Assembly: GCA_019775845.1 (NCBI GenBank)
Contig: JADQAV010000017.1
Location: 310,001-374,000 of the forward strand
From: Myrmaecium sp. VS I D KN 1
Lineage: Eukaryota; Ascomycota; Dothideomycetes; Valsariales; Valsariaceae
Reading direction: 5' to 3'
Length of the DNA stretch: 64,000 bases
Part shown: positions 3,408-60,561 of the stretch, one piece after another
How the letters are laid out: the number at the start of each line of letters is the position of its first letter
Position numbering within the stretch: the stretch's first letter is position 1
Made by a program: the position numbers and the translations under genes
Notes under the pieces: generated by a model
What the model was told of the DNA's origin: nothing
Database searches by the model: none
What the model saw: the letters and a program-made list of their open reading frames with translations, nothing else

Positions 3408-4973
3408 TCAAGCTCTCCGCGCTCTTTTCCCTCCCTCGTCACTTCCGGACTCAGCCTGCCTCTTGGCTGCCCCGTTCATCTTGCGCTCCACCTCCTTCAG
3501 GGCAGCATGCATGTCCCTCAAGATCTCTTTCTCGCCAAGACGCACCTCGACTGCCATTTTTCTCCGCCTAGTTTTCTGGTCAAGGTTTGGGCTTTGAGCG
3601 ATCTCCGCCAACACCTTTTCATCCTCTTCGATGCCGGTGGGGTACTGCTTCCCTCTCTCTTCGATCGCTCGCACCAGCACCGCGGCGGCGGCGGGGGAGA
3701 TCTCCTTGACCTTGGGGAGCTTGTCCTTCTTCTTCAGCCGGTCGAACTCGTCGCGAGGCGCGGCCAGCGTGGCGAGCAGCACGAGCAACTCCATCGACAC
3801 GGCTTCCAGCAGATCTTCGCCGGGGACGGGGCGGGAGAGGTCGTAACCCGAGTCCACCACTCCGTGCTCGTCCAGGTACTCGAGTCTCCGCTCTAACTCC
3901 TTCCCATTTTGGACGCCGGCGGCGCGCAGCACCATGTCGTGGGGGATCTCGACGACGTCGTACTGGGCGTAGTTGTTCGTCATGTACCCGTACCGGCGCA
4001 GGAGGTCCGAGCGCGGGAGCGGCCCGTAGTCGTTGAAAATCTCTGCACCGGCCGGGATGGGGGCGATGGACTTCATGACGAGGGCGTCGCCTTCGTAGAA
4101 GAGGCGGGCGTTGTTCCGGTCCGCGTCCGCGTTGAGCATGTCGGCCATCGGGACCATCCCCTTCGGCGCGGCCTTTTGTCGGCCAAACTCGTCGTGCTCC
4201 TCCTCCCACGCGCCGGAGGCGTCGTTGTCCTCCTCCTCGTTCTCCGAGTCGGAGTCGCCGCCGGACTCGATGTCGAAGGCGTAGGCCATGATCAGGGTGC
4301 CCATCCGATGTGCCAGAGCCAAGAGGCGAGGTTCGCTGAGGTCAGGAGAAATGCCGGCCGGGACGAAGATGTCTTGGTGGGCAAGAATGGCGCCGACGAC
4401 GTTCTCCATGAGTGCGGCGTCGGCGTCGGACTTGCCGATCTTCTGCACGACGGCGCTGGCTTGGAGTTCCGCGAGTTCGGAGTCGTCCCAGAACATGAGG
4501 GTGTCCAAGGAGGCGGTGTCGGGCCAGACGCGGATGTAGCTGGAGAAAGGGGATGGGACGCCGGCCTCGGTACGGAAGTACTCGTACAGCATGACGAGAA
4601 TCAGCGCATGCCAGGGGTTGATTTCGCGGAGCTTGAGACGCTCGGCGTGCTCTTGGTACAGAGCGGAGTTTTCGACGGTCAGGATGAGGTGGCGGGGGAT
4701 GGTGAAGAGAGTCTCGTCCGCGGATATGTCTTGCTTGGCCACTGAAGACTCGATTAGCTGAGACCAGTCGACAACGATACGGAGAAGAGTTTTCCAGGCG
4801 TTCACATCTGCTGGTTGCAGGCGTGGAGGGTCTTTCAGGGACTGCTCACCTACTCCCCGTCCGGCATCTCGATGCCTCAAATCCTCGACGGCGATTTTCT
4901 TGTTGAGAGTGCCGCCGCCGGACAAGAACCAGTCCACGAGGTCTCTGGACCTCTGCTCGAAGGAGACGTCCAT
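3408..4973 (-). CDS. RKM4: SET-domain ribosomal lysine methyltransferase (RKM4/SETD6 type)
   Basis: Exons 4850-4973 and 3408-4741 (complement) encode 485 aa, close to yeast Rkm4 and human SETD6. The predicted activity is S-adenosylmethionine-dependent methylation of a lysine, on ribosomal protein L42 in yeast. The SET fold is split by an insert, as in the Rubisco-LSMT subfamily: DLRHRDAGRGV at the N-terminus, then the catalytic NDYGPLPRSDLLRRYGY block near residue 280, then a helical LSMT-type substrate-binding domain and a basic C-terminus. The intron 4742-4849 is 108 nt, a multiple of three, and contains no stop, so retention would insert 36 residues. Splicing restores the expected GRGV-VAKQDI junction, so I prefer the spliced form. 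Substrate assignment is inferred from family. Confidence 0.8.
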   Translation of the reverse strand: MDVSFEQRSRDLVDWFLSGGGTLNKKIAVEDLRHRDAGRGVGEQSLKDPPRLQPADVNAWKTLLRIVVDWSQLIESSVAKQDISADETLFTIPRHLILTVENSALYQEHAERLKLREINPWHALILVMLYEYFRTEAGVPSPFSSYIRVWPDTASLDTLMFWDDSELAELQASAVVQKIGKSDADAALMENVVGAILAHQDIFVPAGISPDLSEPRLLALAHRMGTLIMAYAFDIESGGDSDSENEEEDNDASGAWEEEHDEFGRQKAAPKGMVPMADMLNADADRNNARLFYEGDALVMKSIAPIPAGAEIFNDYGPLPRSDLLRRYGYMTNNYAQYDVVEIPHDMVLRAAGVQNGKELERRLEYLDEHGVVDSGYDLSRPVPGEDLLEAVSMELLVLLATLAAPRDEFDRLKKKDKLPKVKEISPAAAAVLVRAIEERGKQYPTGIEEDEKVLAEIAQSPNLDQKTRRRKMAVEVRLGEKEILRDMHAALKEVERKMNGAAKRQAESGSDEGGKRARRA

Positions 4974-5326
4974 GGCAAACAGCGAAAGGCAAAGTATAAG
5001 GAGCGTAGGGGCGGGATATGCAGAACGAGTGTCAGTGTCCCTGCAATATCGGCTCTGTCAATGGTGGACCCCCAGGGCATTTAGCGGGCGCGTCGCTCGC
5101 GGGAAAACTGTTTTCCCGGGGGGTTCTTCACCACCGTTTTTCAGCCTTCCCGCCGCTCCACTCCACTTGCTTATCTTATCGGCCAGCCGCGGGACGAGAT
5201 TCTTGTCCCGCCCGGGCTACCCGCAAACATCATCCCGGACTGTCATCGAAAGTGCCGCCGTTGGTTCCCTTGTGACATTGTGAAAAATACCCCGTTCTCG
5301 CCGACCTCCAATACCATTTGTCCGAC
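4974..5326. promoter_or_regulatory. Divergent promoter RKM4/KAE1
   Basis: A 353-bp interval between two head-to-head start codons must hold both promoters. I see no clear TATA box. Confidence 0.5.
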
Positions 5327-13957: not shown

Positions 13958-16117
13958 TCAGAAAAGAGAAGTCGTGCTGCGGCCCATGGGAGGCCGAGCG
14001 TGCCGCATGGGGGAACCGTGGGAGATGGCGGCCGCGCCGATCTTCTCGAATCCCTGGAGCATGTCGAAGCCTGCCTCCTCCGATTCGTCGCTGGGCAGGT
14101 TGATGCCGAAGAACTCGTCGGTGTGAGGATTGAAGGAGACCGACTTCGAGGGCGCGTGCACCTTGCTGGGAGACCTCGTCTTGAGCGGAGACTCCAACGA
14201 GGTGAATTTCATGAAGGGGGACTTCAAGGCAGGCGCCGGAGGCAAAGCACGCGCGTTGGTCTTCATGCCGGTAATGTCGGCGAGGATGCTGGCGGTGGTG
14301 TTAGCCCGTTCAAGACCGGGACGCTTCGCAGAACGTTTCTCGGGCGATCCGCACGCCACCGGGGAACCGCTGAAAACATCAAAGAACTCGTGGAATCGCT
14401 GCTCGTGAAGGTTGAAGTTCTCGTCATCCGGAAGAGCACACGCGGGGCTCCATGGCCACGGGGATCCAGCGAAGCTGCTGTCCATGACGGCAAGCGACTT
14501 GTCTGGAGACCCTCCCATGATCTCCTTCATCCTGTCACGATGATTTCGGAGACTCGTGTTTGGAGAGACGGACATTGGAGGTCGGGCCGGGCGTTTGAAG
14601 ACGACCGCAGGCGTGAGAGGAGTTTCCATGCTGGTGTTGTATGAACGGTAGGGCGAGGACGAAGGGCAAATGGGCGCGGGCGGCTTCATCATGGGCCTGT
14701 TCTTCGTCGGAGACTCGTAAGAAGAGCCGCGAATGCGGGCAATTTCCTCTTCTGCGCGTCCTCGCTTCATGGACGGACGCTCAACATCTGCTTCTGAGGT
14801 GAGGAGAGTGCCCAATGGTTGGCGCTTGACCGCAGAGGATTCGATGGACGAATAGTAACCGCTGTCGCCGAGGGGTACGGGAGCAAACTCTCGTCTCTTG
14901 CCGCCTGAGCGACTGGTCGAGGGGAACCGTGGACCGCGAGGCGGGGTGTCTTCATGCAACGCATGGCGCGAGAGAGGTTGCGGCGGCGATGAACGAATAT
15001 CGACGGGAGGAGGAGAGGAACGGATGTTGCGTGGGCGAGGCGGCATGTTCTCGGCGTTATGACCGTCGTGCAGATCAGGGTCCGAGCAAGGGATTGTCGC
15101 GTCTGACGATAGTTCGGCGTCGTCTGGGAACTTGCTGGTATCGATGCTCTTGAGAGACTTGCCGTGGTGAGTAGCGCTTCCGCCGGATGGTGCCGTGGAG
15201 GGTCTCGCATCACTAGTGGGGGCTTGCATGAGTGTGTCCGAGTTGGTTGCGCGCCTTGGTTTTTCCTGCAGGAACGTGTATTCCATGCCAGGTTCGATAG
15301 CCCAGTAGTGACCTTTTCCAGGATCATCCTTCGGCCTATCGATCTTGATGAAGGCCTTGTTCAAGCTGAGGTTGTGTCGGATGCTGTTCTGCCATCCACT
15401 CTCAGCCACGGCATACCAGCGGTAGGTGTCGGATATCCACTTGTAGATCTGCGCGAGGGTCAGGCGGCGGTTCGGTGACCGGAGAATGGCCATGGCGATG
15501 AGTTTAGCATAGGAATGGCTCGGCTTGGCGCCGTCGTCTTCGATCGCGGGCATCTCGTGAGGTTCGGGCAACGGTATCTTTTCGGTAGCATGGACCTTCT
15601 GCTTTTTGTTCGACCTGTCCCTCAACGGCGTGGCATCCGACAGCGCCCGCTTGAGCGTTTGCTTGTTGGCACAACCCGAGCTGGCATACTGAGGCAGATC
15701 TCCACCGGAGGGGATATTCTCCTTGTCAAAGGTACTAGACGAATCGAAGATGGTAAACGAGTCGACCTTCTTCGAAAGGGTATGCGCCCGTCGGGGAGTC
15801 GCTTGCGGCCTCTTCATCGGAGACTCTGCCGCAGAGGCACTCTGCGAGGGCGGCGGGAAGGAGACGGCGTGGAGGTTGGACTTGGTGAGAGCGCTCGGCG
15901 GTGAGCTGGAGTGGTGGATGTTCTTGGACGGAGAAGGGACGATCGAGGAGAGTTTGGGAGGGTTGAGGAGGGTGTGAGGATCGGTGGAGACCTTGTCCAA
16001 GGGGTTGAGGGCATGTAACAGTCTCTCCTCTACCCCGGAGACGTGGGAGCCGTCGAAAAAATCGACGGGGTCCTGGAACACTAGAGGCGCCGCCCGATGG
16101 GTGGTGACCATATTCAC
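13958..16117 (-). CDS. Forkhead transcription factor (Sep1/Hcm1-like)
   Basis: A single exon of 719 aa. The winged-helix forkhead domain spans about residues 197-285: KPSHSYAKLIAMAIL, LTLAQIYKWISDTYRWY, then the DNA-recognition helix WQNSIRHNLSLN at 241-252 and GKGHYWAIEPG. No FHA domain precedes it, so it resembles fission-yeast Sep1 and yeast Hcm1 rather than Fkh1/Fkh2, although orthology is inference. The remainder is long, low-complexity and rich in Ser-Pro, with many potential CDK sites, which fits a cell-cycle regulator. A basic NKKQKV stretch near 169 could be a nuclear signal. The ATG at 16117 is the first in frame. The gene ends nearest the RIP block: its 5' side is 1.3 kb from it. 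Confidence 0.88.
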   Translation of the reverse strand: MNMVTTHRAAPLVFQDPVDFFDGSHVSGVEERLLHALNPLDKVSTDPHTLLNPPKLSSIVPSPSKNIHHSSSPPSALTKSNLHAVSFPPPSQSASAAESPMKRPQATPRRAHTLSKKVDSFTIFDSSSTFDKENIPSGGDLPQYASSGCANKQTLKRALSDATPLRDRSNKKQKVHATEKIPLPEPHEMPAIEDDGAKPSHSYAKLIAMAILRSPNRRLTLAQIYKWISDTYRWYAVAESGWQNSIRHNLSLNKAFIKIDRPKDDPGKGHYWAIEPGMEYTFLQEKPRRATNSDTLMQAPTSDARPSTAPSGGSATHHGKSLKSIDTSKFPDDAELSSDATIPCSDPDLHDGHNAENMPPRPRNIRSSPPPVDIRSSPPQPLSRHALHEDTPPRGPRFPSTSRSGGKRREFAPVPLGDSGYYSSIESSAVKRQPLGTLLTSEADVERPSMKRGRAEEEIARIRGSSYESPTKNRPMMKPPAPICPSSSPYRSYNTSMETPLTPAVVFKRPARPPMSVSPNTSLRNHRDRMKEIMGGSPDKSLAVMDSSFAGSPWPWSPACALPDDENFNLHEQRFHEFFDVFSGSPVACGSPEKRSAKRPGLERANTTASILADITGMKTNARALPPAPALKSPFMKFTSLESPLKTRSPSKVHAPSKSVSFNPHTDEFFGINLPSDESEEAGFDMLQGFEKIGAAAISHGSPMRHARPPMGRSTTSLF

Positions 16118-17440
16118 TCCTGACCGGATCGAGGGTCAGAAAGGCCTGGACGGGTTGAAAACGGTATTGCTGGCGGAAAGGACGCGTCTATCGCGTCGAA
16201 TTGGGTGGTCGAGGGGGAGTGGAAATAAGTGAAAATGGGTGGTGCGTCGGTACAGCCGGGTCTGGGTGCGGATAAGGCGAGGACTGGCGTCCGAACAGGC
16301 ATGTGGTGGAAGCGGAACGGTGGGTCTGGGAAGGTCGGCGAGTGCAGCAGAGGCTATTGAACTAAAGCATGAGAAGGTGAGGGCGTGGAGAAGGTAAAGC
16401 CTTGATACCCACAAGGTTGTCTAGACTTCCGGATTCGTTTCGTTCGCGCGGAGGCGGGCGCCAACGGGCTCCCTGGGCTTGGCGTGGAATGAGGTTCACC
16501 TCTACCTATTCGAGGGGTGCTCAGTGGTCCCTGGAGTACCGGCCACGAGCGGTGACCGCGGTCTGGTAGGATGATGAATGGTCGCGCAGGAGGTGCAGTA
16601 GTCCTGTGAACGGTCCCAGGTCCAGTAAGTACAGTAGGTACCAGTTCCGCACCGTGTTTCGATGATGTTACGGATACGGTGAAGGTAGGAGTAGGTCGTC
16701 GGTAGGTACAAGTAGGTGGGGATGTATGTAGGTAATAGCAGCAGTAGTAGTACCTAGTCGTAGTCAGGTAGTAGGTAGATTACTGCTAGTAATCGCCAAG
16801 GCGCTCTGAGGTCAACGGATCGTTCGATAGGACCGCAATCGTGTAGCGGGAGCAGTAGTGGTAGTAGGCGGTCAGATAGGATATCTCAATAGTAGAGAGG
16901 ACGGACGGGAAGCGCGACGATCGCACGCACACTCGCACTCAACAGACGGACAATGCGGGCAAAATGCAAACACAAACAACACGAGGTGGAGAGGGGGGGG
17001 AGGGGTGGTTTTCTTTCGAATTGGGCGGGAATGCTGAGGAGAAGTAAGTAGTGGTGAGTGAACAAAGCGGGCGGGCAGGTAAGCTGAAGATCCGATCGGG
17101 GAAGCAGGAGAGAGGATGAGAGGATGAGAGGATGGCTGCCTTGCTGAGAAGTGGGGTTTCCCTCGGCCTGCTTTGGGCCTTGCCGGGGGCTACTTTTGGG
17201 GGCACTTCCTCTAACTTGCGGCTTTCTGTTTCCTCACGATTGAGCGGCGATGCGTTGTCAGCCGGCTAGACAAGGGGGAGGACAGGGGCCCGAGGGGGGC
17301 GCCAGGGGGGGGGATGGGGGGCTTGCAAGGGACCTCCCTGCCCCGTCCGCTGGCCATCGCAAGCAATCGGGCCAATGATGTCAGGCAAGGGGCTGACGAC
17401 CTTAGCGTCTGAGGGGTGCTTCTAGAGCGGTGATTGTCTG
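16118..17440. promoter_or_regulatory. Forkhead gene upstream region
   Basis: About 1.3 kb between the forkhead ATG and the AT-rich block. It contains many TAGGTA/GTAG-type low-complexity stretches (about 16680-16790) and a G-rich segment just before the block (17260-17330). I see no gene. It presumably carries the forkhead promoter and 5' leader. Confidence 0.5.
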
Positions 17441-33935: not shown

Positions 33936-36060
33936 ATGGCCTCCCCTCCGCACCCGTTCAGCAATCTCTCACCCAGCGAGATCACCATCGCCCGAGATGT
34001 CATCCTCGCCGCCCACCCCAACGTGGTCATCGACTTCCGGGAGATCTACTTGCGGGAGCCGGACAAGGAGGACATGAAGAAATTCCTGGAGCTGGAGCAC
34101 GCTGGCCGGCTCACCCCCTCGACGCCCCGGCCCCCACGCCTGGCCAAGTGCCAGTACGACGTGGTGGGCGCCAACCGGATCCCGGAGTACCACGAGGCCT
34201 TCGTCGACGTCGTGCGGCGGCAGCGGGTCAAGCACGAGGTGATCGGCAAGGAGCACCAGGCCTCGCTGACGCTGTGGGAGTTCGAGCACCTGCTGGAGGC
34301 CTGCAAGCGGTCCGCGCTGTTCCAGGAGGCGGTCGCCGCGCTGAACCTGCCGGCCGGCTTCGAGCTCGTCGTCGAGCCGTGGCCGTACGGCGGCTTGGAC
34401 GACGCGGAGGAGAACCGGCGGTACTTCCAGGGCTTGTGCTTCGCCCAGGACACCCGCACCGGCAACCCGGACGCCAACTACTACGCCTACCCCCTCCCGC
34501 TCATCCCCATCATGGACGCCCACACCAGGGAGATCATCCGGGTGGACAAGCTGGCCACGGGCGGGACGGGCGACGGGCTCGATGCCCAGACCCACGGCCC
34601 CAACGTCCTCGAGCACTGCCGGCCGGCTGAGTACGTGCCGGAACTGCTGCCGAACGGGACGAGGAAGGACCTCAAGCCGCTGAATGTCGTTCAGCCGGAG
34701 GGGCCTTCCTTCACCATTACGGATGAGTCGCTGGTCGAGTGGCAGAAGTGGCGGTTCCGGGTGTCGTTCAACCCGCGCGAGGGCGCCGTCATCCACGACG
34801 TCCATTATGATGGTCGAAGCATCTTGTACCGGCTAAGCATCAGTGAGATGGTAAGTCAGAGACAGAACCTCCTCCTCCTCCTCCTGTCCATCGTCGTCCC
34901 CAGGAAAACGCATGGCTGACATATCATTCCAGACCGTACCCTACGCCGACGCCCGCGCCCCCTTCCACCGCAAGCAAGCCTTCGACTTCGGCGACGGCGG
35001 GGCGGGCAACTGCGCCAACAACCTCTCACTCGGGTGCGACTGCCTGGGGGTGATCAAGTACTTCGACGGCGCGGTGGTGAGCTCGGCGGGCGAGCCGACG
35101 GTGACGCCAAACGTGATCTGCCTGCACGAGCAGGACAACGGGATCGGGTGGAAGCACCAGTCCTGGCGGACGGGCCGGGCGGTGGTGTCGCGGCTGCGCG
35201 AGCTGGTCGTGCAGTTCATCATCACGCTGGCCAACTACGAGTACGTGTTCGCGTACAAGTTCAACCAGGCGGGCGACGTCACGCTCGAGGTCCGCGCGAC
35301 CGGCATCGTCTCCGTCGTCAACATCGACCCGGGCAAGACGAGCCCGTACGGGAACGTGGTCAACCCGGGCACCCTCGCCCAGAACCACCAGCACATCTTC
35401 TGCGCCCGCCTCGACCCGGCCGTCGATGGCCACGACAACACCGTCGTCCTCGAGGAGTCCCACCCCGTCCCCATGAACTCGGTCACCAACCCGCGCGGCA
35501 ACTTCTACGAGGTCCGCCAGACCGTCCTCGACCGCAGCGTCGGCCTCGACGCCGCCCCCTTCCACAACCGCGTCGTCAAGGTGCAGAACGAAGCCGTCCG
35601 CAACCCCATCAGCCAGCGACCGGTAGCCTACCAGTTCGCGCCGCCGCCCACGCAGCTCCTCCTCGCCGACCCGGCCAGCATCCAGAGCCGACGGGCCCGG
35701 TTCGCCCGGCACCACGTCTGGCTGACCCGGTACCGGGACGACGAGCTCCACGCCGGCGGCCGCTTCACGATGCAGAGCCGGGCCGAGGTCGGCGGCGTGG
35801 CCGACGCGGCCGCCCGCGCCGACCCCGTCCGCGCCGCCGACTGCGTCCTCTGGGCCGTCTTCGGCCTCACCCACAACCCCCGCGTCGAGGACTGGCCCGT
35901 CATGCCCGCCGACGCCTTCACCCTCGCCTTCCGGCCCGCCGACTTCTTCACCCAGAACCCGGCCCTCGACGTCCCCACCGTCCGGAACGAGAGTAGCGTG
36001 CTCGCGCCCTCGTCGTCGTCGGTGTGCTGTGCGTCTGGGGCGGATCGGAGTAAGCTGTAA
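33936..36060 (+). CDS. Peroxisomal copper amine oxidase
   Basis: Exons 33936-34850 and 34933-36060 encode 680 aa. It oxidises primary amines to aldehydes with release of ammonia and hydrogen peroxide, using Cu(II) and a topaquinone made from its own Tyr. The topaquinone site is ANYEY (Tyr 407). Copper ligands are NHQHIF (His 457 and 459) and LTHNPRVEDWP (His 619). The catalytic base is Asp 341 in LGCDC. The protein ends in SKL, a textbook PTS1 peroxisomal signal. N2/N3 domains precede the catalytic beta-sandwich, and the length is normal. The gate position that is Tyr in Hansenula AO appears to be Gly here (GGAGN), a variant I recall in other fungal enzymes. Codon use is extremely GC-rich. 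A TATA box lies 70-80 bp upstream. Confidence 0.94.
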
Positions 36061-51204: not shown

Positions 51205-52565
51205 ATGGTCAAGGAGACCAAGCTATACGATCAACTGGGTAGGTCGAGCCCTCTCCACCCTTAAGTCCTCCGCTCCACATGCTGACAGCCCAAAGGCATC
51301 CAGCCCTCAGCAACACAGGATGAAATCAAGAAAGCATACCGAAAGGCCGCCCTGAAGTACCACCCTGACAAGAACAAGGACAACCCGTCGGCGGTCGAGA
51401 AGTTCAAGGGTAAGCAGCAGCCTGATTCCCCACTCTGTCGCTTGTGCAGCCGAGCCGCCGGAAGCCGTTGACGAGCATCCCGCACCATGATGGATACGTT
51501 GCTAACGTCTTCATGCAGAGGTATCACAAGCTTATGAGATCCTATCCGATCCCGAGAAACGCAAAGTCTATGACCAGTTCGGTCTTGAGTTCCTCCTCCG
51601 TGGAGGCGCGCCCCCACCAGAAGGTGCAGCAGGTGGAGGAGCTGGCCCTGGTGGCATGCCATTTGAGGGCTTCAACTTCAGTGGCATGCCCGGCGGCGGC
51701 GGAGGCGGAGGCACTCGCACATTCCACTTCAGCACCGGTGGTGGCGGTGGAGGCGGTGGCTTCCACTTCTCCAACCCGGATAGCATATTCGCCGAGTTCT
51801 TCCGAAGCCAAGGAGGTGGCGGCATGGGAGGTGACGACGAAGACATGTTCGGCGGATTCGGCGGCATGCCCGGCGGCTTCGGAGGTAGTGCGAGGCCCAA
51901 GGCTACCAGGAGTGCGGGTGCCGGTGCGAACGGGACGAGATTCGAAGGCGCGAGGAGGCAGCCCACACCGGAAGTCACGGTCGTGGAGAAGCAGCTGCCA
52001 GTCTCGCTTGAGGATCTTTACACCGGCACAACGAAGAAGATGAAGATCAAGCGCAAGACGTACGATCAGTTGACGGGAAAGCAGAGTATGCAAGATAGGA
52101 TATTGGAGGTTCCTATCAAGAAGGGTCTGAAAGCAGGAAGCAAGATCAAGTTCTCGGATGTGGGAGACCAAGTGGAAGGCGGAACACAGGACCTCCACTT
52201 CATCATTCAAGAGGTAATGATTAAACCCAATACTCCAATCGTCACTCAACTCGGTACTAACATCCTAATAGAAGGACCATCCTCTCTTCAGTCGTGAAGG
52301 CGACGACGTCAGACACAACGTCGAGATTGACCTCAAGGAAGCCCTTACCGGATGGTCTCGCACTGTGCAGACCATCGACGGCAAGTCCATCAAGGTCAGC
52401 CACTCTGGCCCTACACCTCCCACATGGGAAGAACGGTACCCGAACCTGGGCATGCCCAAGAGCAAGAAGCCCACGGAGCGCGGTGACTTCATCGTCGGCG
52501 TCAAGATCAAGTTTCCCACTACCTTGACGGCACAGCAGAAGGAGGCACTCAAAAACATCCTCTAA
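51205..52565 (+). CDS. SIS1: Class B J-protein (SIS1-type Hsp40)
   Basis: Exons 51205-51238, 51296-51409, 51519-52213 and 52272-52565 encode 378 aa. It is a co-chaperone that stimulates Hsp70 ATPase and delivers substrates, in cytosol and nucleus. The J domain (residues about 5-70) carries the HPD tripeptide (KYHPDKN). A long Gly/Phe-rich region follows (about 80-185), with no zinc-finger domain, hence class B. Two C-terminal beta domains come next ([23 protein letters not shown] and [21 protein letters not shown]), then a short dimerisation tail. Splicing was fixed by LYDQLG-IQPSA, KFKE-VSQAYE and IIQE-KDHPLF. The first exon is only 34 nt. Confidence 0.94.
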
Positions 52566-53196
52566 ACCAACACACGAGCGGCCTATCCTTTCCGAAGCGC
52601 AAGTTAGCGGACCTTAGGCTGCATCGCTCATCCTCCCGCCTCCTTTTGATCTTTTCCAAGCGCCAGTCAACTGTTGGAAAACCTGGCGCCCGACTCTTTC
52701 TTCCATCCTTAGTCTTTTCTTTAGCCAGGGTGATTACTTGACCGGATTGTTCGGAGCACGACGGAGTTCGATTCAGGAGTTTTGTGTTGAAGGCGAGACC
52801 CCCTTTCGAGTGTAATGTTTCGCGCTCGGAGGACGGGGGGCGGATATTGAAGTTGTTCGTTGTGCTCGAGCGCAAGGCAGGAAAGTAGTTTCCTCGTGCG
52901 TGGGGTTCGCGGTCATATTTCTCCACTATTTTCTTTATTTATCTATTTTCTTTTCCTTCACTTCCCTTTCCACTACATTTCACGAGCCTTTACGACTGCT
53001 TGGGGGGTTTGAAGCGCGATCTGAGGTAGTTACGGGTTTTTGGACGCCTTTCATATCCATTTCCTTGTCAATAGAGAGAAAACAAATATCATCTCTTCCG
53101 AAACCCAGCCTTCCTTTACTTGATTGGCTTTGACGTGACCAAAGTACGATACTTGACGTGGTACAACCCACAACCCCCAGGGATATTTCAAACAGA
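52566..53196. other. Convergent 3' flanks
   Basis: About 0.6 kb between the SIS1-type gene and the pseudokinase gene stop. T-rich tracts near 52920-52980. No gene seen. Confidence 0.55.
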
Positions 53197-55006
53197 TCAG
53201 AGGCAATTCGCCGCCCTCTCCAACACGTCTACCACCTGCAGTCGGAACGCCTGCTGCAGCTTCAGGTCCTCCTTCGTGTCCCCACCGCTGACGCCGAAGG
53301 CCCCGCCCAGACACCGCTCCACGACCTCGCGGTAGCGCTCGCCCATCTTGTCGCCGAGGCGGTGCTGGGCCTGCTTCAGGAACTGCTTCCGGATGACCCA
53401 GGGGTCGCGGGCGTTGCGGAAGTGGCTGCGCTCGAGCGTGATGGCGCGCTGCCAGAGGCCGATCTCGAGCAGGACGACGCCGAGGGCGTAGATGTCGTGG
53501 GTCTTATTGAAGAGCTTGCCCGGCTGGCCCTGCCGCTCCGGGTGCCGGTAGACGTCCCGGGCGAGGCAGACGTCCGGGTGACCGGCGGAGAAGTCGATCT
53601 CGGGCCGGGAGAAGTCGAAGCCGAGCAGACAGGGCCGGGAGAAGGGGATGCGGGGTGTGCTGGAGGTTGCGGTGGAGCCAGGGTCGGGGCCGTGGCCGAC
53701 GGCGGGAGAGGCGCGCTGTTGCTGAGGGAAGAAGAGTATATTCTCACTGCGGAAGGATTCATGGACCTAGCAAGCGAAATCAGCTGGTGGGCGCGGGATA
53801 TTGATCGAGACTGCCGCCTCACCCATTTGACCATTTGTAGCTGCGAGATGCACCTCGCGAGCGCGAGCGCAAGCTTGAATCTCTCACCGAGTGTCGGCTT
53901 TATGTCTTTCGCATCCAGAAGTCTGTACAGACTGAAAGGTTGCGGCGTAGCACCTTCCGGTAGGTCAAAGATGAAAGCTAAACAGTTTCGCGAAGGGTTG
54001 TATTTCCATCCGATGCAGCGAGGGATACAGAACACCTGTTCCTTGGGCTGCTGTAACAGCCTCGCTAGGTCGTTGACACGGACCCGGGTTCGGGGATCGA
54101 TTTCATCTGATCCTTGAACCTGCGCTTCAAGATGATGGTTTTCTTGCAAGTACACCTTGCCCTCATGCTTCACCAACGCAAAGCGGTCCTCTACTGGGCT
54201 CGCTCGCCGAAGTGCTTCCAGCCAGGTCAGCTCCAACAACTCAAACGACGAATTGCTGCTCAGCGCATCGCTGGCTGTTAACTTTAGTGTGGCGTCGACA
54301 TCAAACCCCAGCGCTTTCGAGCTTTCATCATTCTGAAGACGCCGAAGATGTTGGTGGTTGAGGCCGAAGCTGGACGCAAGGCACCAGAGTTTGATGTTCT
54401 CATGTATCCGGCTGTTCAAGTCAGTAAAATCCCTTAGGATCTCTTCAGTGCGCTTCTTGTCCTGCAGACTCCACCGAAGCAAGTTAAAAGAACTCCGGGG
54501 GAAAGATCGCCACGGTGAGGGTACCCTAGGTGGCGGATACTCTTTCAGCGAAAGATCTGACATCGACCCAATGGAAGCTGTGGGGGAAAGCAATTGGGGA
54601 AACTGCTCCTGGGGAGCATATCGCCTGACAAGCAGATCATGGCCCTCTCGCAATGTGTGCACCAAACGCTCAAGGAAAACCCTAATCTGATCTTGAACAT
54701 CTTCGTCGAAATTCTCAAATAGGGTCAAGCTTCCATATATAGGTGAAGGCTCAAAGAGAACATGCCGAAGCTGTCGGGTGCGATTGTTTTCATCTTTGAT
54801 TTTGTCATGCAAGGATGAAGAATCCTGTCAAGTCAGGTTAGGGCGCTTCTTCCATTTGGTCCAGTAGCATCAAAGCCGAGTGGTAATCCCCTCACTTCAC
54901 TGAATGATTTCGCATCTGATATCAACTGAGCGGTCCGCTCTCCAAGTTTGAGCAGCTGGTCCACAATGGCTATCGTCAAACCACAGATGCTCGTTGGGTC
55001 GATCAT
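53197..55006 (-). CDS. Helical-bundle plus pseudokinase protein (MLKL-like architecture)
   Basis: Exons 54896-55006, 53823-54824 and 53197-53766 (complement) encode 560 aa. The first ~110 residues (IDPTSICGLTIAIVDQLLKLGE...) look all-helical and resemble the HeLo-like or STAND-type N-terminal domains of fungal incompatibility proteins; the exact family is uncertain. Residues about 250-555 follow a protein-kinase plan but lack catalytic residues. The catalytic loop reads HESFRSEN in place of HRDxKxxN (373-380), the DFG region reads LLGFDFSRPE (419-428), and VYLQ stands where the ATP-lysine strand should be. An APE-like YRHPE and the helix-F motif DIYALGVVLLE remain. This is therefore a pseudokinase. 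The third exon has no ATG and is easily missed; without splicing the frame runs on into unrelated sequence. It is head-to-head with the kinase-ankyrin gene. Confidence 0.75.
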
Positions 55007-55437
55007 AGCGTCCGGCCCCCAATTTGCAGAGCGTGCTTGACAGGGATGTAACAATCGGAGGGGATGAGCACAATCTCGAGTAGATTTATGGTCAGTACTT
55101 TGGTGATCTGGCCCTTGAGTCTACACTTGTATATATTCGATGAGAACAGATGGGAATTAGAGGGCAGAACGGAAGAGGATAAATAGAAGGACTGACGGGG
55201 AGAAGGCCAACGGTGCCCAATAGAGGGAAATCTGACATGCAGCAGGGAGGGGCTACAGCGGCTCAGCTGAACAGGCAGCCACAGATGCAGCATTGGTTAG
55301 TTACTGGCATCGCTCTGAAAAGCCACTAGCCCAGGTTGCGTCGGACCACTCCAGCTCAGCTGAAGGGGCCAAGATTGTCCAGTACATCTCCAGAAGATGT
55401 CCAGAGAGGCCTTGATCAAGAGAGGGAGCGGTTGCCA
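55007..55437. promoter_or_regulatory. Divergent promoter of the pseudokinase / kinase-ankyrin pair
   Basis: A 431-bp interval between opposing ATGs, the only space for both promoters. A TATATAT element lies near 55131-55138. Shared control of the two genes is likely but not shown. Confidence 0.5.
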
Positions 55438-58400
55438 ATGGCGTCGCTGGAGGGCATCTCCTTCGACGTGAGTATACACTCCGGTCTGACTTTACCTACG
55501 GCTCCATTGACTCGGTCCAGATTGCATCGAAGAACGTGTCCCGGACGATCTTGTCGAGCGTAGGGGGATTCTCTCAGCCTGCGCGTCGACAGATCCGTTC
55601 CCTCCAGGATCTCCTTGCGACGATCCAGCGATTCGATCTCGAGCTCTTTGAAGCAGCCGCTCTGTTTGATGAGAAGTTCGTCGGCGAGGGCGTGTCCTAC
55701 CGAGTGTCCTCGTGCAAGCACAAACTGTCAGGACGGGTGGTGGCAGTGAAGCGAGTCAAGCTGCCCTCGATCTCGGCAGATGCGGGCGCCTTCGAGAGGC
55801 AGATTGCAACGGTGTTGCGAGATGTCGAGGTGAGGAAATGGGGATGGACCCCTTGACGGGAAGAAGAAGAAGCTCGCTAACCACTGCTGCCTCTTAGGTC
55901 ATGTCCGCCCTGCGCGGACAACGAAGCATCCTCAACATCTTCGGCTACGGATGGAATGTGCAGGCAGGAAGCATCATCCCGTTCCTCGTCACCGAATTCG
56001 CGGCTGAAGGAACGCTCCGTCAATTTCTCAAGCACAACCAAGTCCCCGCTCGCGAAAAGTTGCTCCTCTGTCGAGATATCGCGGAGGGGCTCCACTCCCT
56101 GCATGTCTGCGGCATAGCCCATGGCGACCTCAAGCTTGACAACATACTGATCACGCCGTCGCTCGGACAGAATGCCGGACCTGGCGTGCAGCAGGATTCA
56201 GATGATGCAAATGCTCGCTCCCTTGGTGTAGCAGCTTGCATCTCGGACTTTGGCCATTCTCTTCACCTCTACGACAGAGAAGATGATACTGCAGGCAATC
56301 AACGCTATGGCGGCACTCTTGCCTACAATGCTCCGGAGATCTCTAGATCCAAGCACGGCGGCTCCAAAAGCGTGGAGCTGAATTTCAGGAAGTGTGACGT
56401 CTGGAGCTTGGGGCTGGTCTTCTGGGAACTATTTGCGGACGGTCATTCCTATCATCATAGTCCCAAAGTCCAAGAGAAAGTCTCACTCAGCCAGCAACGC
56501 ACGCGATCCAGCTCAGTCACACTGACTAATAATGGCACCCAAAGCTCTACGTCAACATTGGTCGATGATATTGCTCTTGCAGCGCCTGTTTTGGCAGATG
56601 CCGCGTGCGAGGAAGTCAAAGCAAAGCTCGGAGATCAACTTGTTCCAATCGAAATCCATGAACTCCAAGGAATGCTTCGCATGGCATTGGAACCGGAGCC
56701 AGAGACTCGCGTGGCCGATATACCTCGACTCTCCTATCTCTTTCGCAAATCGGCGGGGACGTCAGCCGGAGCGCAATCCTCAGGCTTCGGGCGTTCATCA
56801 TGGAGCTTTGAGATATTCTGGAATGCACACAGACTTCCATACCAGGTCAAACACCAGATTCTTGAAGACTGCAAAAGGATAGCAACTGAGCCAGGCCAGT
56901 CATTTGCTTCATCTCGGGCAGCTTTCCAGGCCTCCCTGGCGTATTCAACTGGATTCGGTGCGAAAGTTGATCAAAGTGCTGCTCTCCACTGGCTCTCTGT
57001 GAGTGCACAAAAAGGGTTTGAACATGCTCAATACCTCATACCTGTTTGGGAAGCGGCATTTCGGGGTCCTGGAACTGAAAGCGGGGATCTGTCATACTGG
57101 AGCTGTCTGAAATCCCTGATACAGAGGAGGGTCACCGAAGGAGCATTTGCCCAGAGGTATCTCAAAGTTGAGGATGATGGCACGAAGCACCTTGACATGC
57201 TTCCTAACGACGTCGACATCGATCTTGGTGACGAAAGCTCAGTCACCTTTGCTTGCAAGCTAGGGAATCTTGAAATGTTAGAATGGTTGCTGAATCGAAA
57301 GGCAGATCCTGCATCAAGCGACAGTGATGATTGTAATGGGCTCCATTGGCTCGCCATGTTTCCAGACCTCGACGTACCTGTCGCCCTTTGCCTTCTGATT
57401 GGGGACACTGATCCTGGGCCTTGGGTCAAAAGCGAAGCATCTTCAGTCGAACGGAACATTAATCCGCAATTACCTGTTCGCATATATGGCACGCCACTGA
57501 ATTTCGCTGTAGCGCTTGGTTCTCCAGCCGCCGTTTCTGCACTATTACTCAAAGGATCGAATCCTCTCCAAGGCGTTGGTTCTGAGACAGAGCAGGAAAG
57601 TTTCCGAGGCTCTGCAGCGCATACTGCCTCTAAGCTTCACATGGACGACTATCTCAAAGTTTGCTTGTCATTTATTCGAGGCGATTCTACGCGACCGGTG
57701 AACTTTCCATACACGTCAATAAGTAAACGCGAGCTGCTCGATGCTGTTGATTTCATTTCACGATCATTCTCTGATGCCCTTCCCATGGAAAGGGCTCTGT
57801 TACATGGGCATAACGCTCCTGGAGCCGCGCGACGTACTTTGAAGGTGTTGGACGGATTTTGTAGGACAAATGGTACCAAGTGGCCTGTTTGGCAGACCCT
57901 CGAACCTGCTGTAACCAAGGGAGATATCGACCTGATCCAAATGATCATCGAATATAATGCTGAGCTGCATCCGCCGGCCCTGACAGTCCAAGATGCAAAT
58001 AGGATGATCTTGGGATGCACCCAAGCAGCCTGCTCAGGGAGTTTCGAACTCGACACTTCTCTGCAATTGATTCAACTCGCTCTCATGGCAGGAGCTGCTG
58101 CTAGTATCAACGGTACCTATACTTCCGGAAGAGGTCGTAGGCCTATTAACATCGCAATAGAGCATCATCGAGCAGAAATCCTTGACTGGTTCATTGGTGA
58201 GAGGGCTGATCTCAATGCCGTCGACGACGGCGGAAATGCTCCTTTGCACCATATGGTGACAAGTGGTTTCGGCACATCCTACGGCTTAAACACTCTCCTA
58301 AAGATGGGTGCTTCCACTACTGTGCTGAACGATGACCAAATGAGTCCCATTCATCTAGCGATCAATGAGAGGAATATGGAGCATGTCAAAGTTCTTATGG

Positions 58401-60561
58401 ACCACAGTTCGGAGGTTGTTGCTCCGTTGGACACCTTTTCTCTCCTCATGCATGCTACAAGACTTCGCGTGTTTCAAGCGGTGTCCATCATCCTCGGCTC
58501 AATGCGGCAGAATCATATCAAGCCCCCCAACGGCTTTCGAGACATCATCATACATGCTGTATTGGACGATTTCACGGAGCTGGTTACCACCCTCTTGGAA
58601 TTTGACTCTAGTTTCGATCTCTATCCACTTCTTACCAACGCTGTCAGCCATGGGTCGTTCGATTGTCTCAATGCCATTCTCCGGTTCAAGGGAAACTGGC
58701 GACAGCAGCACATCCACCTTTATGCCCTCCTTGCCCAAGCATCGGAAGGTGGTAATGCTGACATGGTAAAACTACTGCTTGATTGTGGGGCGAACCCCTC
58801 TATTTGGGATCACCGTGGCATGTCCAGCCTACATATTGCTGTCCAACATGGCCATGTCGAAGTTGTCGCAGCATTGGTAAAAAATGGAGCGGCTATAGAT
58901 GTCCTTAGCAACGAAAGCGAGACGCCTCTGGTTGTGGCCATTACCAGCCAGATTCAACCATCCAAAAGACTATCCATCATTCATCACTTGCTCAACGCTG
59001 GCGCGAATCCTAATATTGCGAACTCAGACTGCCAGCCTGCGCTTTGGTATGCTGTCTTTCGATTGAATGAAGTGGAGGGCTTGGAGGTTATGAAGCTTCT
59101 CTACGAACATGGCGCATTGCTGAACGCGCCCTTCCCAAGGCCGTTGCTGCATCTAGCAATCAGACACAACAAGATGGCAGCGGCAACGTATCTTATGGAC
59201 TTGGGAATCTCTGTTGGCACCACTGACGAGGATGGGTTTACTGCTCTGCATGAGTGCGCCTTGGCACTGTCTCCAGGCACAAAAGCCCTTGTCAACGAGG
59301 AGAGCTTGTTTGCTGAACGTTTGCTCAGATCGGGCGTCCCCGCACATGCAACTGATAAGAAAGGCATTACTGCGCTTGAGCTTGCCTCCATGGCGGACAA
59401 TGGCCCCGTCTGCCTCACTCTTCTTGCGTATTTCAAGGAGAGAGGCAAACCCAGTCCTGACCATTCGTTGCATAACCTCAAACCTTTGGACAGTAATATT
59501 GTGAAAAGCTCATGGTATCAAGCAACTCGGAACAGATGCTTGACCAGCATTTGCGCTTTCCTTGAACAGAATCTCCAATACGATACACGGGTGTTAAGGG
59601 ACGATTCTGTTGATAGAGACGTTTTGGAATATGCTGTCGTCACGGACCTACGAAATGTTCTCATAAAATTTATGGGCAGTTCAAGAGCCCCGGAGATCAG
59701 CAAGGCTTTAATTGATGACCACTTAAAGGAGCTGTGGACGGCGATATGTTCAGCACTCGTTATAGATGGAGCTGCCAGTTACCTTACGGCCTCTTTCCGG
59801 TCACGATTCTTACCACGCCTGCACCGTTTCAGACTCAGCGGCGGTTACGTTCCGCTGTTAACTCAAGAGGAGTTGCGCGAGAAAGGCTTTCTGGAAATGC
59901 AGCAGGAACAGGGGTTGATTGAGACGCTTGTCGATCTGGAAGAGTTTTATGAAGTAATCTACGGCAAGGAAGTCGTCGACTTCTTACTCGGAAACCACGA
60001 ATCCGAGGACCTACCAGAGGCGACGGGCGCTGACCCATTTGTGTTACATAACGATACACTCGGAATCTTCGGCGAGTTATATGAACCGGTTATGGACGAC
60101 CCGTCATATACCCTGGGTGAAGAAGGCGCACGACTAGCTGATAATCACCAGTATTGGGAAGATGCAGAAGCCGCACAACGGGACGCCGAGCCCAAGAAGC
60201 AAGGACGCAGCCTGATGGCCGTTCTCAAGGGGAAGCAGAAGATTGGACTTCGAGGCGGCAAGCTAAAATGGATCGTCTATGAAGACGCCACACCTATAGA
60301 GCTTCGTAATGAATCTGGCCTCGTCCAAGTGGTGAGCGTCGATCCTGGGGACCATACTGTTGGTGATCTTCAACTTGAGCACAACATGTCGCTTCTCGGG
60401 ACTTTTGGGGCGAAGGAAATCGCGTGGTAAGGCTCTGGAGGTGTATACATAATCCATTACGAGCATGGCTAACACCATCTTCCAGGGGAAGCTTGAGGAC
60501 GCCGTTCCGAGACCAGGATAACCCGTACGCTGCGAGACGACGGGGAATGTACGCTCGATAG
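55438..60561 (+). CDS. Protein kinase with Sel1-like and ankyrin repeats
   Basis: Exons 55438-55467, 55521-55829, 55898-60426 and 60486-60561 encode 1647 aa. The kinase domain (about residues 55-395) looks active: Gly-loop VGEGVSYRV (from 64), VAVK Lys 87, catalytic loop HGDLKLDN (Asp 190), DFG at 230-232, and APE at 258-260. A Sel1-like segment follows (AYSTGFGAKVDQSAALHWLSVSAQKG). Ankyrin repeats then extend over about residues 560-1310, for example GMSSLHIAVQHGHVEVVAALVKNGAAID and DGFTALHECAL. The C-terminal ~330 residues have no domain I know. The last intron restores an ORF that would otherwise end at 60430 and adds 25 residues (ending RRRGMYAR). The kinase-ankyrin order recalls animal RIPK4 and ANKK1. 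It is divergent from the pseudokinase gene. Confidence 0.82.

What the first reader, a model, noticed from the sequence alone, without database searches (positions are those of the whole stretch)
53197..60561. Head-to-head helical-bundle pseudokinase and ankyrin kinase: a possible fungal necroptosis-like module
Seen: two divergent genes 431 bp apart. One encodes an N-terminal helical region plus a kinase fold with degraded catalytic motifs. The other encodes a kinase with all catalytic motifs, a Sel1-like segment and a long ankyrin array. Known: in animals the kinase RIPK3 activates MLKL, a four-helix bundle plus pseudokinase that permeabilises membranes, and RIPK4/ANKK1 are kinase-ankyrin proteins; fungal HeLo/HELL bundles act as membrane-killing effectors and are often encoded beside their sensors. 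Inference: ankyrins sense, the kinase signals, the pseudokinase protein executes cell death or incompatibility.
Basis: partly seen in the sequence, partly recalled or inferred. Interest (0 to 1): 0.85.

Follow-up and report, generated by a model that had tools for sequence, protein, structure and literature searches.

The report
Fungal MLKL-like protein beside ankyrin kinase
A fungal genome carries, head to head, a gene for a dead-kinase protein with a probable membrane-attacking front end and a gene for a live kinase with ankyrin repeats; each gene type is familiar, and whether the two work together as a cell-death switch is plausible but untested.

Summary
Gene A (minus strand, 3 exons, 560 aa) ends in Pfam DUF7580 (50.5 bits, cut-off 27), a kinase fold whose HRD reads HES, so very probably a pseudokinase. 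Its first ~215 residues match HeLo best, in near-register but below cut-off (16.8 against 23.2 bits); 0 of 9 shuffles match HeLo. Gene B (plus strand, 4 exons, 1647 aa) is a kinase with its main catalytic motifs (HGD for HRD) plus many ankyrin repeats; its Sel1 match is below cut-off. The start codons are 431 bp apart. AlphaFold without relatives gives a helical N-terminus at low confidence and no fold match: inconclusive. HELL-plus-pseudokinase proteins and two-gene death clusters are in print (PMC12881547, passages); I saw no HeLo-pseudokinase paired with a kinase-ankyrin gene in the listings of seven searches, some of them cut short. Apart from this one, no fungal genome was available to me, so conservation of the pair, the decisive test, could not be run. 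The necroptosis-like reading rests on architecture and adjacency only; chance neighbours are almost as likely.

The parts
53197..55006 (-). Gene A: HeLo-like N-terminus plus DUF7580 pseudokinase, 560 aa; exons 54896-55006, 53823-54824, 53197-53766
   Evidence: Gene model; Pfam
54291..55006 (-). Probable HeLo four-helix-bundle region of A (residues 1-215, intron 54825-54895 inside)
   Evidence: HeLo 16.8 bits, E 0.0064, residues 145-179 on profile 141-175; helical AlphaFold model of residues 38-222, pLDDT 56
53212..53900 (-). DUF7580 match of A (residues 346-556, intron 53767-53822 inside); pseudokinase C-lobe with HES for HRD, SEN, GFDFSR, HDIYALG
55007..55437 (.). 431-bp stretch between the two start codons, shared divergent upstream region
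55438..60561 (+). Gene B: protein kinase, weak Sel1 segment, ankyrin array, 1647 aa; exons 55438-55467, 55521-55829, 55898-60426, 60486-60561
   Evidence: Gene model; Pfam
55671..56527 (+). Kinase domain of B (residues 61-323, intron 55830-55897 inside): GEGVSYRV, VAVK, E113, HGDLKLDN, DFG, APE
   Evidence: Pkinase 93.9 bits; motif positions
56918..57016 (+). Sel1-like segment of B (residues 454-486), below Pfam cut-off
   Evidence: 16.5 bits against 30.7
58730..59266 (+). Best-scoring part of the ankyrin array of B (the array is longer)
   Evidence: Ank_2, 7 stretches, best residues 1058-1154; genome search places C7:368730-369020 and 369078-369266

Best explanation
Gene A encodes a fungal HeLo-pseudokinase protein built like MLKL: a latent N-terminal helical bundle whose first helix can attack membranes, held or released by a C-terminal dead-kinase domain. 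Gene B encodes a live protein kinase with a long ankyrin array and is the best candidate for A's upstream sensor-activator: a ligand or partner bound by the ankyrins would license the kinase, which phosphorylates or binds the pseudokinase of A and frees its bundle to permeabilise the cell's own membrane. Shown here: gene structures, DUF7580, loss of the catalytic Asp, B's kinase motifs and ankyrins, adjacency. Inferred: bundle function, autoinhibition, cell death, and any action of B on A.
For: DUF7580 above cut-off in A; Pkinase and ankyrins far above cut-off in B. Residues 1-215 of A: HeLo is the better of two Pfam matches and near-collinear with the profile; 0 of 9 shuffles match HeLo. The only other DUF7580 place that the genome search found (C49) belongs to a frame that also has a sub-threshold, near-collinear HeLo match at its N-terminus (43-103 on 38-94, 18.9 bits). 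Predicted helical N-terminus, then strands and a helix as in a kinase N-lobe, at pLDDT only 40. Residues 5-22 are among the most hydrophobic 17-residue stretches of A. In print: some HELL domains sit in kinase/pseudokinase proteins as in MLKL, and fungal necroptosis-like pathways are often two- or three-gene clusters (PMC12881547 passages). Crossing all 142 kinase places with all 37 Ank_2 places of this genome, B is the only same-strand pair closer than 10 kb, so its architecture looks unique here.
Against: HeLo never passes Pfam's cut-off; Foldseek of the model gave 36 matches with E up to 10, none at 0.001 or better, none titled MLKL or HET-s; phmmer of residues 1-201 against the PDB gave none. 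No shared motif between the N-termini of A and B. Kinases are common here (142 matched places, about 94 after merging within 3 kb), and a kinase gene stands head to head with an ankyrin frame elsewhere in this genome (C5), so such neighbours arise without being a module. The fungal HELL system described in the passage I read (HELLP) is switched by an amyloid motif, not by a kinase (PMC5485727).
Confidence: 0.42

Rival explanations
1. Chance neighbours: A is a member of the fungal HeLo-DUF7580 family answering to another trigger, and B is an independent kinase-ankyrin regulator; the 431-bp gap only reflects a compact genome.
For: Flanks are housekeeping genes at similar spacing: a DnaJ gene whose last frame ends at 52565 (631 bp from A) and Cbf5/dyskerin frames from 61290 (728 bp from B) (frames, families; assigning the end frames to those genes is my reading). 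A kinase/ankyrin neighbour pair occurs elsewhere (C5). The second DUF7580 gene (C49) has no ankyrin neighbour: no Ank_2 place lies on that contig.
Against: B's kinase-ankyrin make-up looks unique in this genome, and it abuts one of only two DUF7580 places found; a kinase place also lies about 4.4 kb from the C49 DUF7580 frame (C49:14279-14539), though one such hit is no more than chance could give; effector-sensor adjacency is said to be frequent in fungal systems.
Confidence: 0.38
2. A is a non-killing signalling or scaffold pseudokinase whose N-terminal helices serve dimerisation or membrane docking, possibly as the substrate adaptor of B.
For: HeLo match below cut-off, low-confidence model without fold match; Pfam calls DUF7580 a domain of unknown function.
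Against: Near-collinear HeLo matches in both DUF7580 proteins found in the genome.
Confidence: 0.15
3. Guard and decoy: A's dead kinase domain is bait for microbial effectors that target kinases, and B (or another protein) reads its modification.
For: Kinase domains at the C-terminus of nine Sordariales NLRs are proposed integrated decoys (PMC12258605 passages).
Against: No effector, NLR or allelic evidence was found or looked for at this locus beyond the domain scans.
Confidence: 0.05

Closest known systems
MLKL (animal necroptosis executioner) with RIPK3
   Same: Order of parts in A: helical bundle then pseudokinase; a live kinase as candidate activator.
   Different: The live kinase is an ankyrin protein; no RHIM was recognised, though no RHIM profile was run; no match of A to MLKL in the PDB by sequence; no interaction shown.
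Fungal HeLo/HELL proteins with kinase/pseudokinase domain; Pfam DUF7580 (PF24476)
   Same: A fits: DUF7580 above cut-off and a probable HeLo N-terminus.
   Different: HeLo part is divergent and sub-threshold; neighbour is a kinase-ankyrin gene.
HET-S/NWD2 and HELLP-type two-gene systems
   Same: Membrane effector encoded beside a putative repeat-bearing sensor (PMC10197012 passages).
   Different: B is no NLR by Pfam and shares no motif with A; the signal would be phosphorylation or binding, not amyloid templating.
RIPK4/ANKK1 (kinase-ankyrin proteins; recalled)
   Same: Kinase followed by ankyrin repeats in B.
   Different: B's kinase matches many PDB kinases about equally, RIPK1 among them; no evidence of descent from the RIPK family.

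Membership tests
DUF7580 (PF24476) fungal pseudokinase family | Profile match above Pfam cut-off | tested here: met
   50.5 bits against 27
HeLo domain (PF14479) | Profile match above Pfam cut-off | tested here: not met
   13.6 bits whole protein, 16.8 bits for residues 1-215, cut-off 23.2
HeLo / MLKL 4HB fold | Four-helix bundle with N-terminal helix | tested here: inconclusive
   Helical model without helix 1, pLDDT 56; no significant Foldseek match
MLKL-like pseudokinase effector | Kinase fold lacking the catalytic Asp | tested here: met
   HES at 373-375 in place of HRD (motif alignment is my reading)
MLKL-like pseudokinase effector | Membrane permeabilisation and cell death on activation | not testable with these tools
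   Needs experiment
Active protein kinase (gene B) | Gly loop, Lys, Glu, HxD Asp, DFG, APE present | tested here: met
   Positions 65, 87, 113, 190, 230, 258 from the motif offsets; Pkinase 93.9 bits
Necroptosis-like two-gene module | Effector and sensor genes adjacent across species | not testable with these tools
   The tools give no relatives for this genome (note)
Amyloid-coupled NLR/HELL system (HET-S/NWD2, HELLP) | Shared amyloid motif between effector and sensor | tested here: not met
   By local alignment only, no amyloid profile: N-termini no better than shuffles (89 of 200), whole A against B 72 of 200; the two kinase parts alone do better (44 against 33.7, 5 of 200), as kinase folds would

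The most novel reading that the evidence does not exclude
A fungal kinase-to-pseudokinase death switch: an ankyrin-sensing kinase directly phosphorylates a HeLo-pseudokinase executioner, a counterpart of RIPK3-MLKL without NLR or amyloid motif, in a genome with few recognisable NLR domains.
Probability: 0.2. Interest if true: 0.85.

Novelty: new member of a known kind. Interest (0 to 1): 0.42.

Why it matters
MLKL homologues exist in animals and plants, and fungi have proteins of the same layout; their control is, as far as I could find, not described. If B proved to activate A, the kinase-pseudokinase logic of necroptosis would extend to fungi beside the known amyloid route, and the question whether that logic is ancestral would become testable with two genes. 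As it stands the pair is a reasonable candidate, not evidence of such a pathway.

Tried and rejected
Relatives for an alignment: viral contigs scanned with A (17 pattern stretches, none confirmed) and with B's kinase (3 stretches, none); the prokaryote collection genome contigs was not scanned. PDB by sequence: A, 7 weak hits with E 0.054 or worse; residues 1-201 of A, none up to E 10. Structure of residues 38-222 and of the whole of exon 2, both without relatives: pLDDT 56 and 40; Foldseek of the first was uninformative, the second was not searched. Alignment of A's exon 2 with the C49 relative: 26% identity with long gaps, too poor to guide folding.

Repertoire of this genome, frame by frame and all lower bounds: HeLo 0 places (nothing rang in the controls either, so this shows no absence), PF17111, now named PigL_N and called HeLo-like in PMC9815663, 1, HET 7, NACHT 1 above cut-off of 2, NB-ARC 1, DUF7580 2, Ank_2 37. 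The NACHT search missed at least one: the AAA_16/kinase protein on C5 scores 29.2 bits for NACHT, cut-off 26.7. Considered and rejected: HGD in B as a sign of inactivity (the catalytic Asp is kept); the 327-aa plus-strand frame at 53134-54117 as a gene (it lies opposite A's exons 2 and 3, exon 3 having GC3 0.895). Promoter, tRNA and RNA-family scans were not run, being beside the question.

Literature: seven searches. 'DUF7580' is in no held paper. Listings were cut (20 of 151; 20 of 23; 20 of 24). In what was listed I saw no paper on a HeLo-pseudokinase gene paired with a kinase-ankyrin gene, but I judged by titles, abstract starts and passages only. Read: passages of PMC12881547 and its section 18, passages of PMC10197012, PMC9815663, PMC12258605, PMC5485727, PMC8778642 (among early-diverging fungi, MLKL-family homologues only in Glomeromycotina, with Sel1 repeats); of the rest listings only.

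Full report
What is there. Two divergent genes were modelled from GT..AG splice sites chosen by eye. Gene A: minus strand, exons 55006-54896, 54824-53823, 53766-53197, 560 aa. Gene B: plus strand, exons 55438-55467, 55521-55829, 55898-60426, 60486-60561, 1647 aa. The start codons are 431 bp apart. On the left lies a DnaJ gene and on the right Cbf5/dyskerin, 631 and 728 bp away by the frames, so the pair sits among housekeeping genes at spacings not unlike its own.

Gene A. Pfam gives DUF7580 at residues 346-556 with 50.5 bits, cut-off 27. The catalytic loop reads HESFRSEN at 373-380, so the HRD aspartate is a serine, while GFDFSR at 420 keeps a DF (positions; alignment mine). That makes A very probably a pseudokinase. 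The N-terminus alone (1-215) matches HeLo best: 16.8 bits, E 0.0064, residues 145-179 on profile positions 141-175; the cut-off is 23.2. Nine shuffles of that stretch gave no HeLo match and one match of any family at E up to 1. The other DUF7580 place found in this genome (C49, 29% identity over the shared part) lies in a frame that also has a weak near-collinear HeLo match, 43-103 on 38-94, E 0.0014. Two separate sub-threshold matches in near-register make a divergent HeLo domain likely, not proven. AlphaFold on residues 38-222, without relatives and without the first helix (a separate exon), gives long helices at pLDDT 56; with all of exon 2, helices followed by strands at pLDDT 40. The structure test is therefore inconclusive.

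Gene B. Pkinase at 61-323 (93.9 bits), Ank_2 in 7 stretches (143.5 bits), Sel1 at 454-486 below cut-off (16.5 against 30.7). The main catalytic motifs are kept: GEGVSYRV, VAVK, E113, HGD, DFG, APE. Against the PDB its kinase part matches 632 distinct sequences, of which the best 60 were shown: first phosphorylase kinase gamma, then PINK1, MNK2 and RIPK1; nothing singles out the RIPK family. No close relative of B is in this genome (9 matched places, 3 of them B itself, the rest E 9.9e-5 or weaker).

Do they belong together? For: effector and sensor genes often lie side by side in fungal death systems, and a 2025 review notes HELL domains in kinase/pseudokinase proteins reminiscent of MLKL (PMC12881547 passages). 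Crossing all 142 kinase places with all 37 Ank_2 places, B is the only same-strand combination closer than 10 kb, and it abuts one of two DUF7580 places. Against: kinases are frequent, about 94 loci after merging within 3 kb; on C5 an AAA/kinase gene stands head to head with an ankyrin frame; A and B share no N-terminal motif; the second DUF7580 gene has no ankyrin gene on its contig, though a kinase place lies about 4.4 kb away, which I take as chance. The test that would decide, conservation of the pair in other fungi, could not be made: the tools give no relatives of this genome.

Most likely working. I take A to be an MLKL-like latent membrane effector and B its most likely, unproven, activator. 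The fungal HELL system HELLP uses an amyloid motif rather than phosphorylation (PMC5485727 passage), so a kinase-driven version would be a real addition. The NLR set looks small: NACHT 1 place above cut-off of 2, NB-ARC 1, both lower bounds, since at least one further NACHT match above cut-off turned up on C5. That makes a sensor that is not an NLR worth following up.

Verdict. Gene A is a new member of a known but, as far as I found, functionally uncharacterised kind; the pairing is a hypothesis. Interest 0.42.

Noticed in passing
53197-53766 (minus strand): Third exon of A has GC3 0.895 against about 0.57 in exons 1 and 2; sharp change within one gene, cause unknown.
   Followed up: no
L025:899-5074 (C49), minus strand: Second DUF7580 gene: 1391-aa frame with a weak HeLo match in front, HRH in place of HRD (my reading), and a long extra C-terminal part.
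   Followed up: partly
L029:3501-6305 (C11): The only PigL_N (PF17111) frame found in the genome is followed on the same strand by a frame with a borderline ankyrin match (22.7 bits at a cut-off of 22.7); possibly one HELL-ankyrin gene.
   Followed up: partly
L028:687-8517 (C5): AAA_16/NACHT/kinase protein (1356-aa frame) head to head with an ankyrin frame followed by a DIL-domain frame.
   Followed up: partly
34855-36057: Copper amine oxidase frame (422 bits) in the same window; also EPL1 at 1050-2771, SET/Rubisco-LSMT at 3408-5057, Forkhead at 13958-16135.
   Followed up: no
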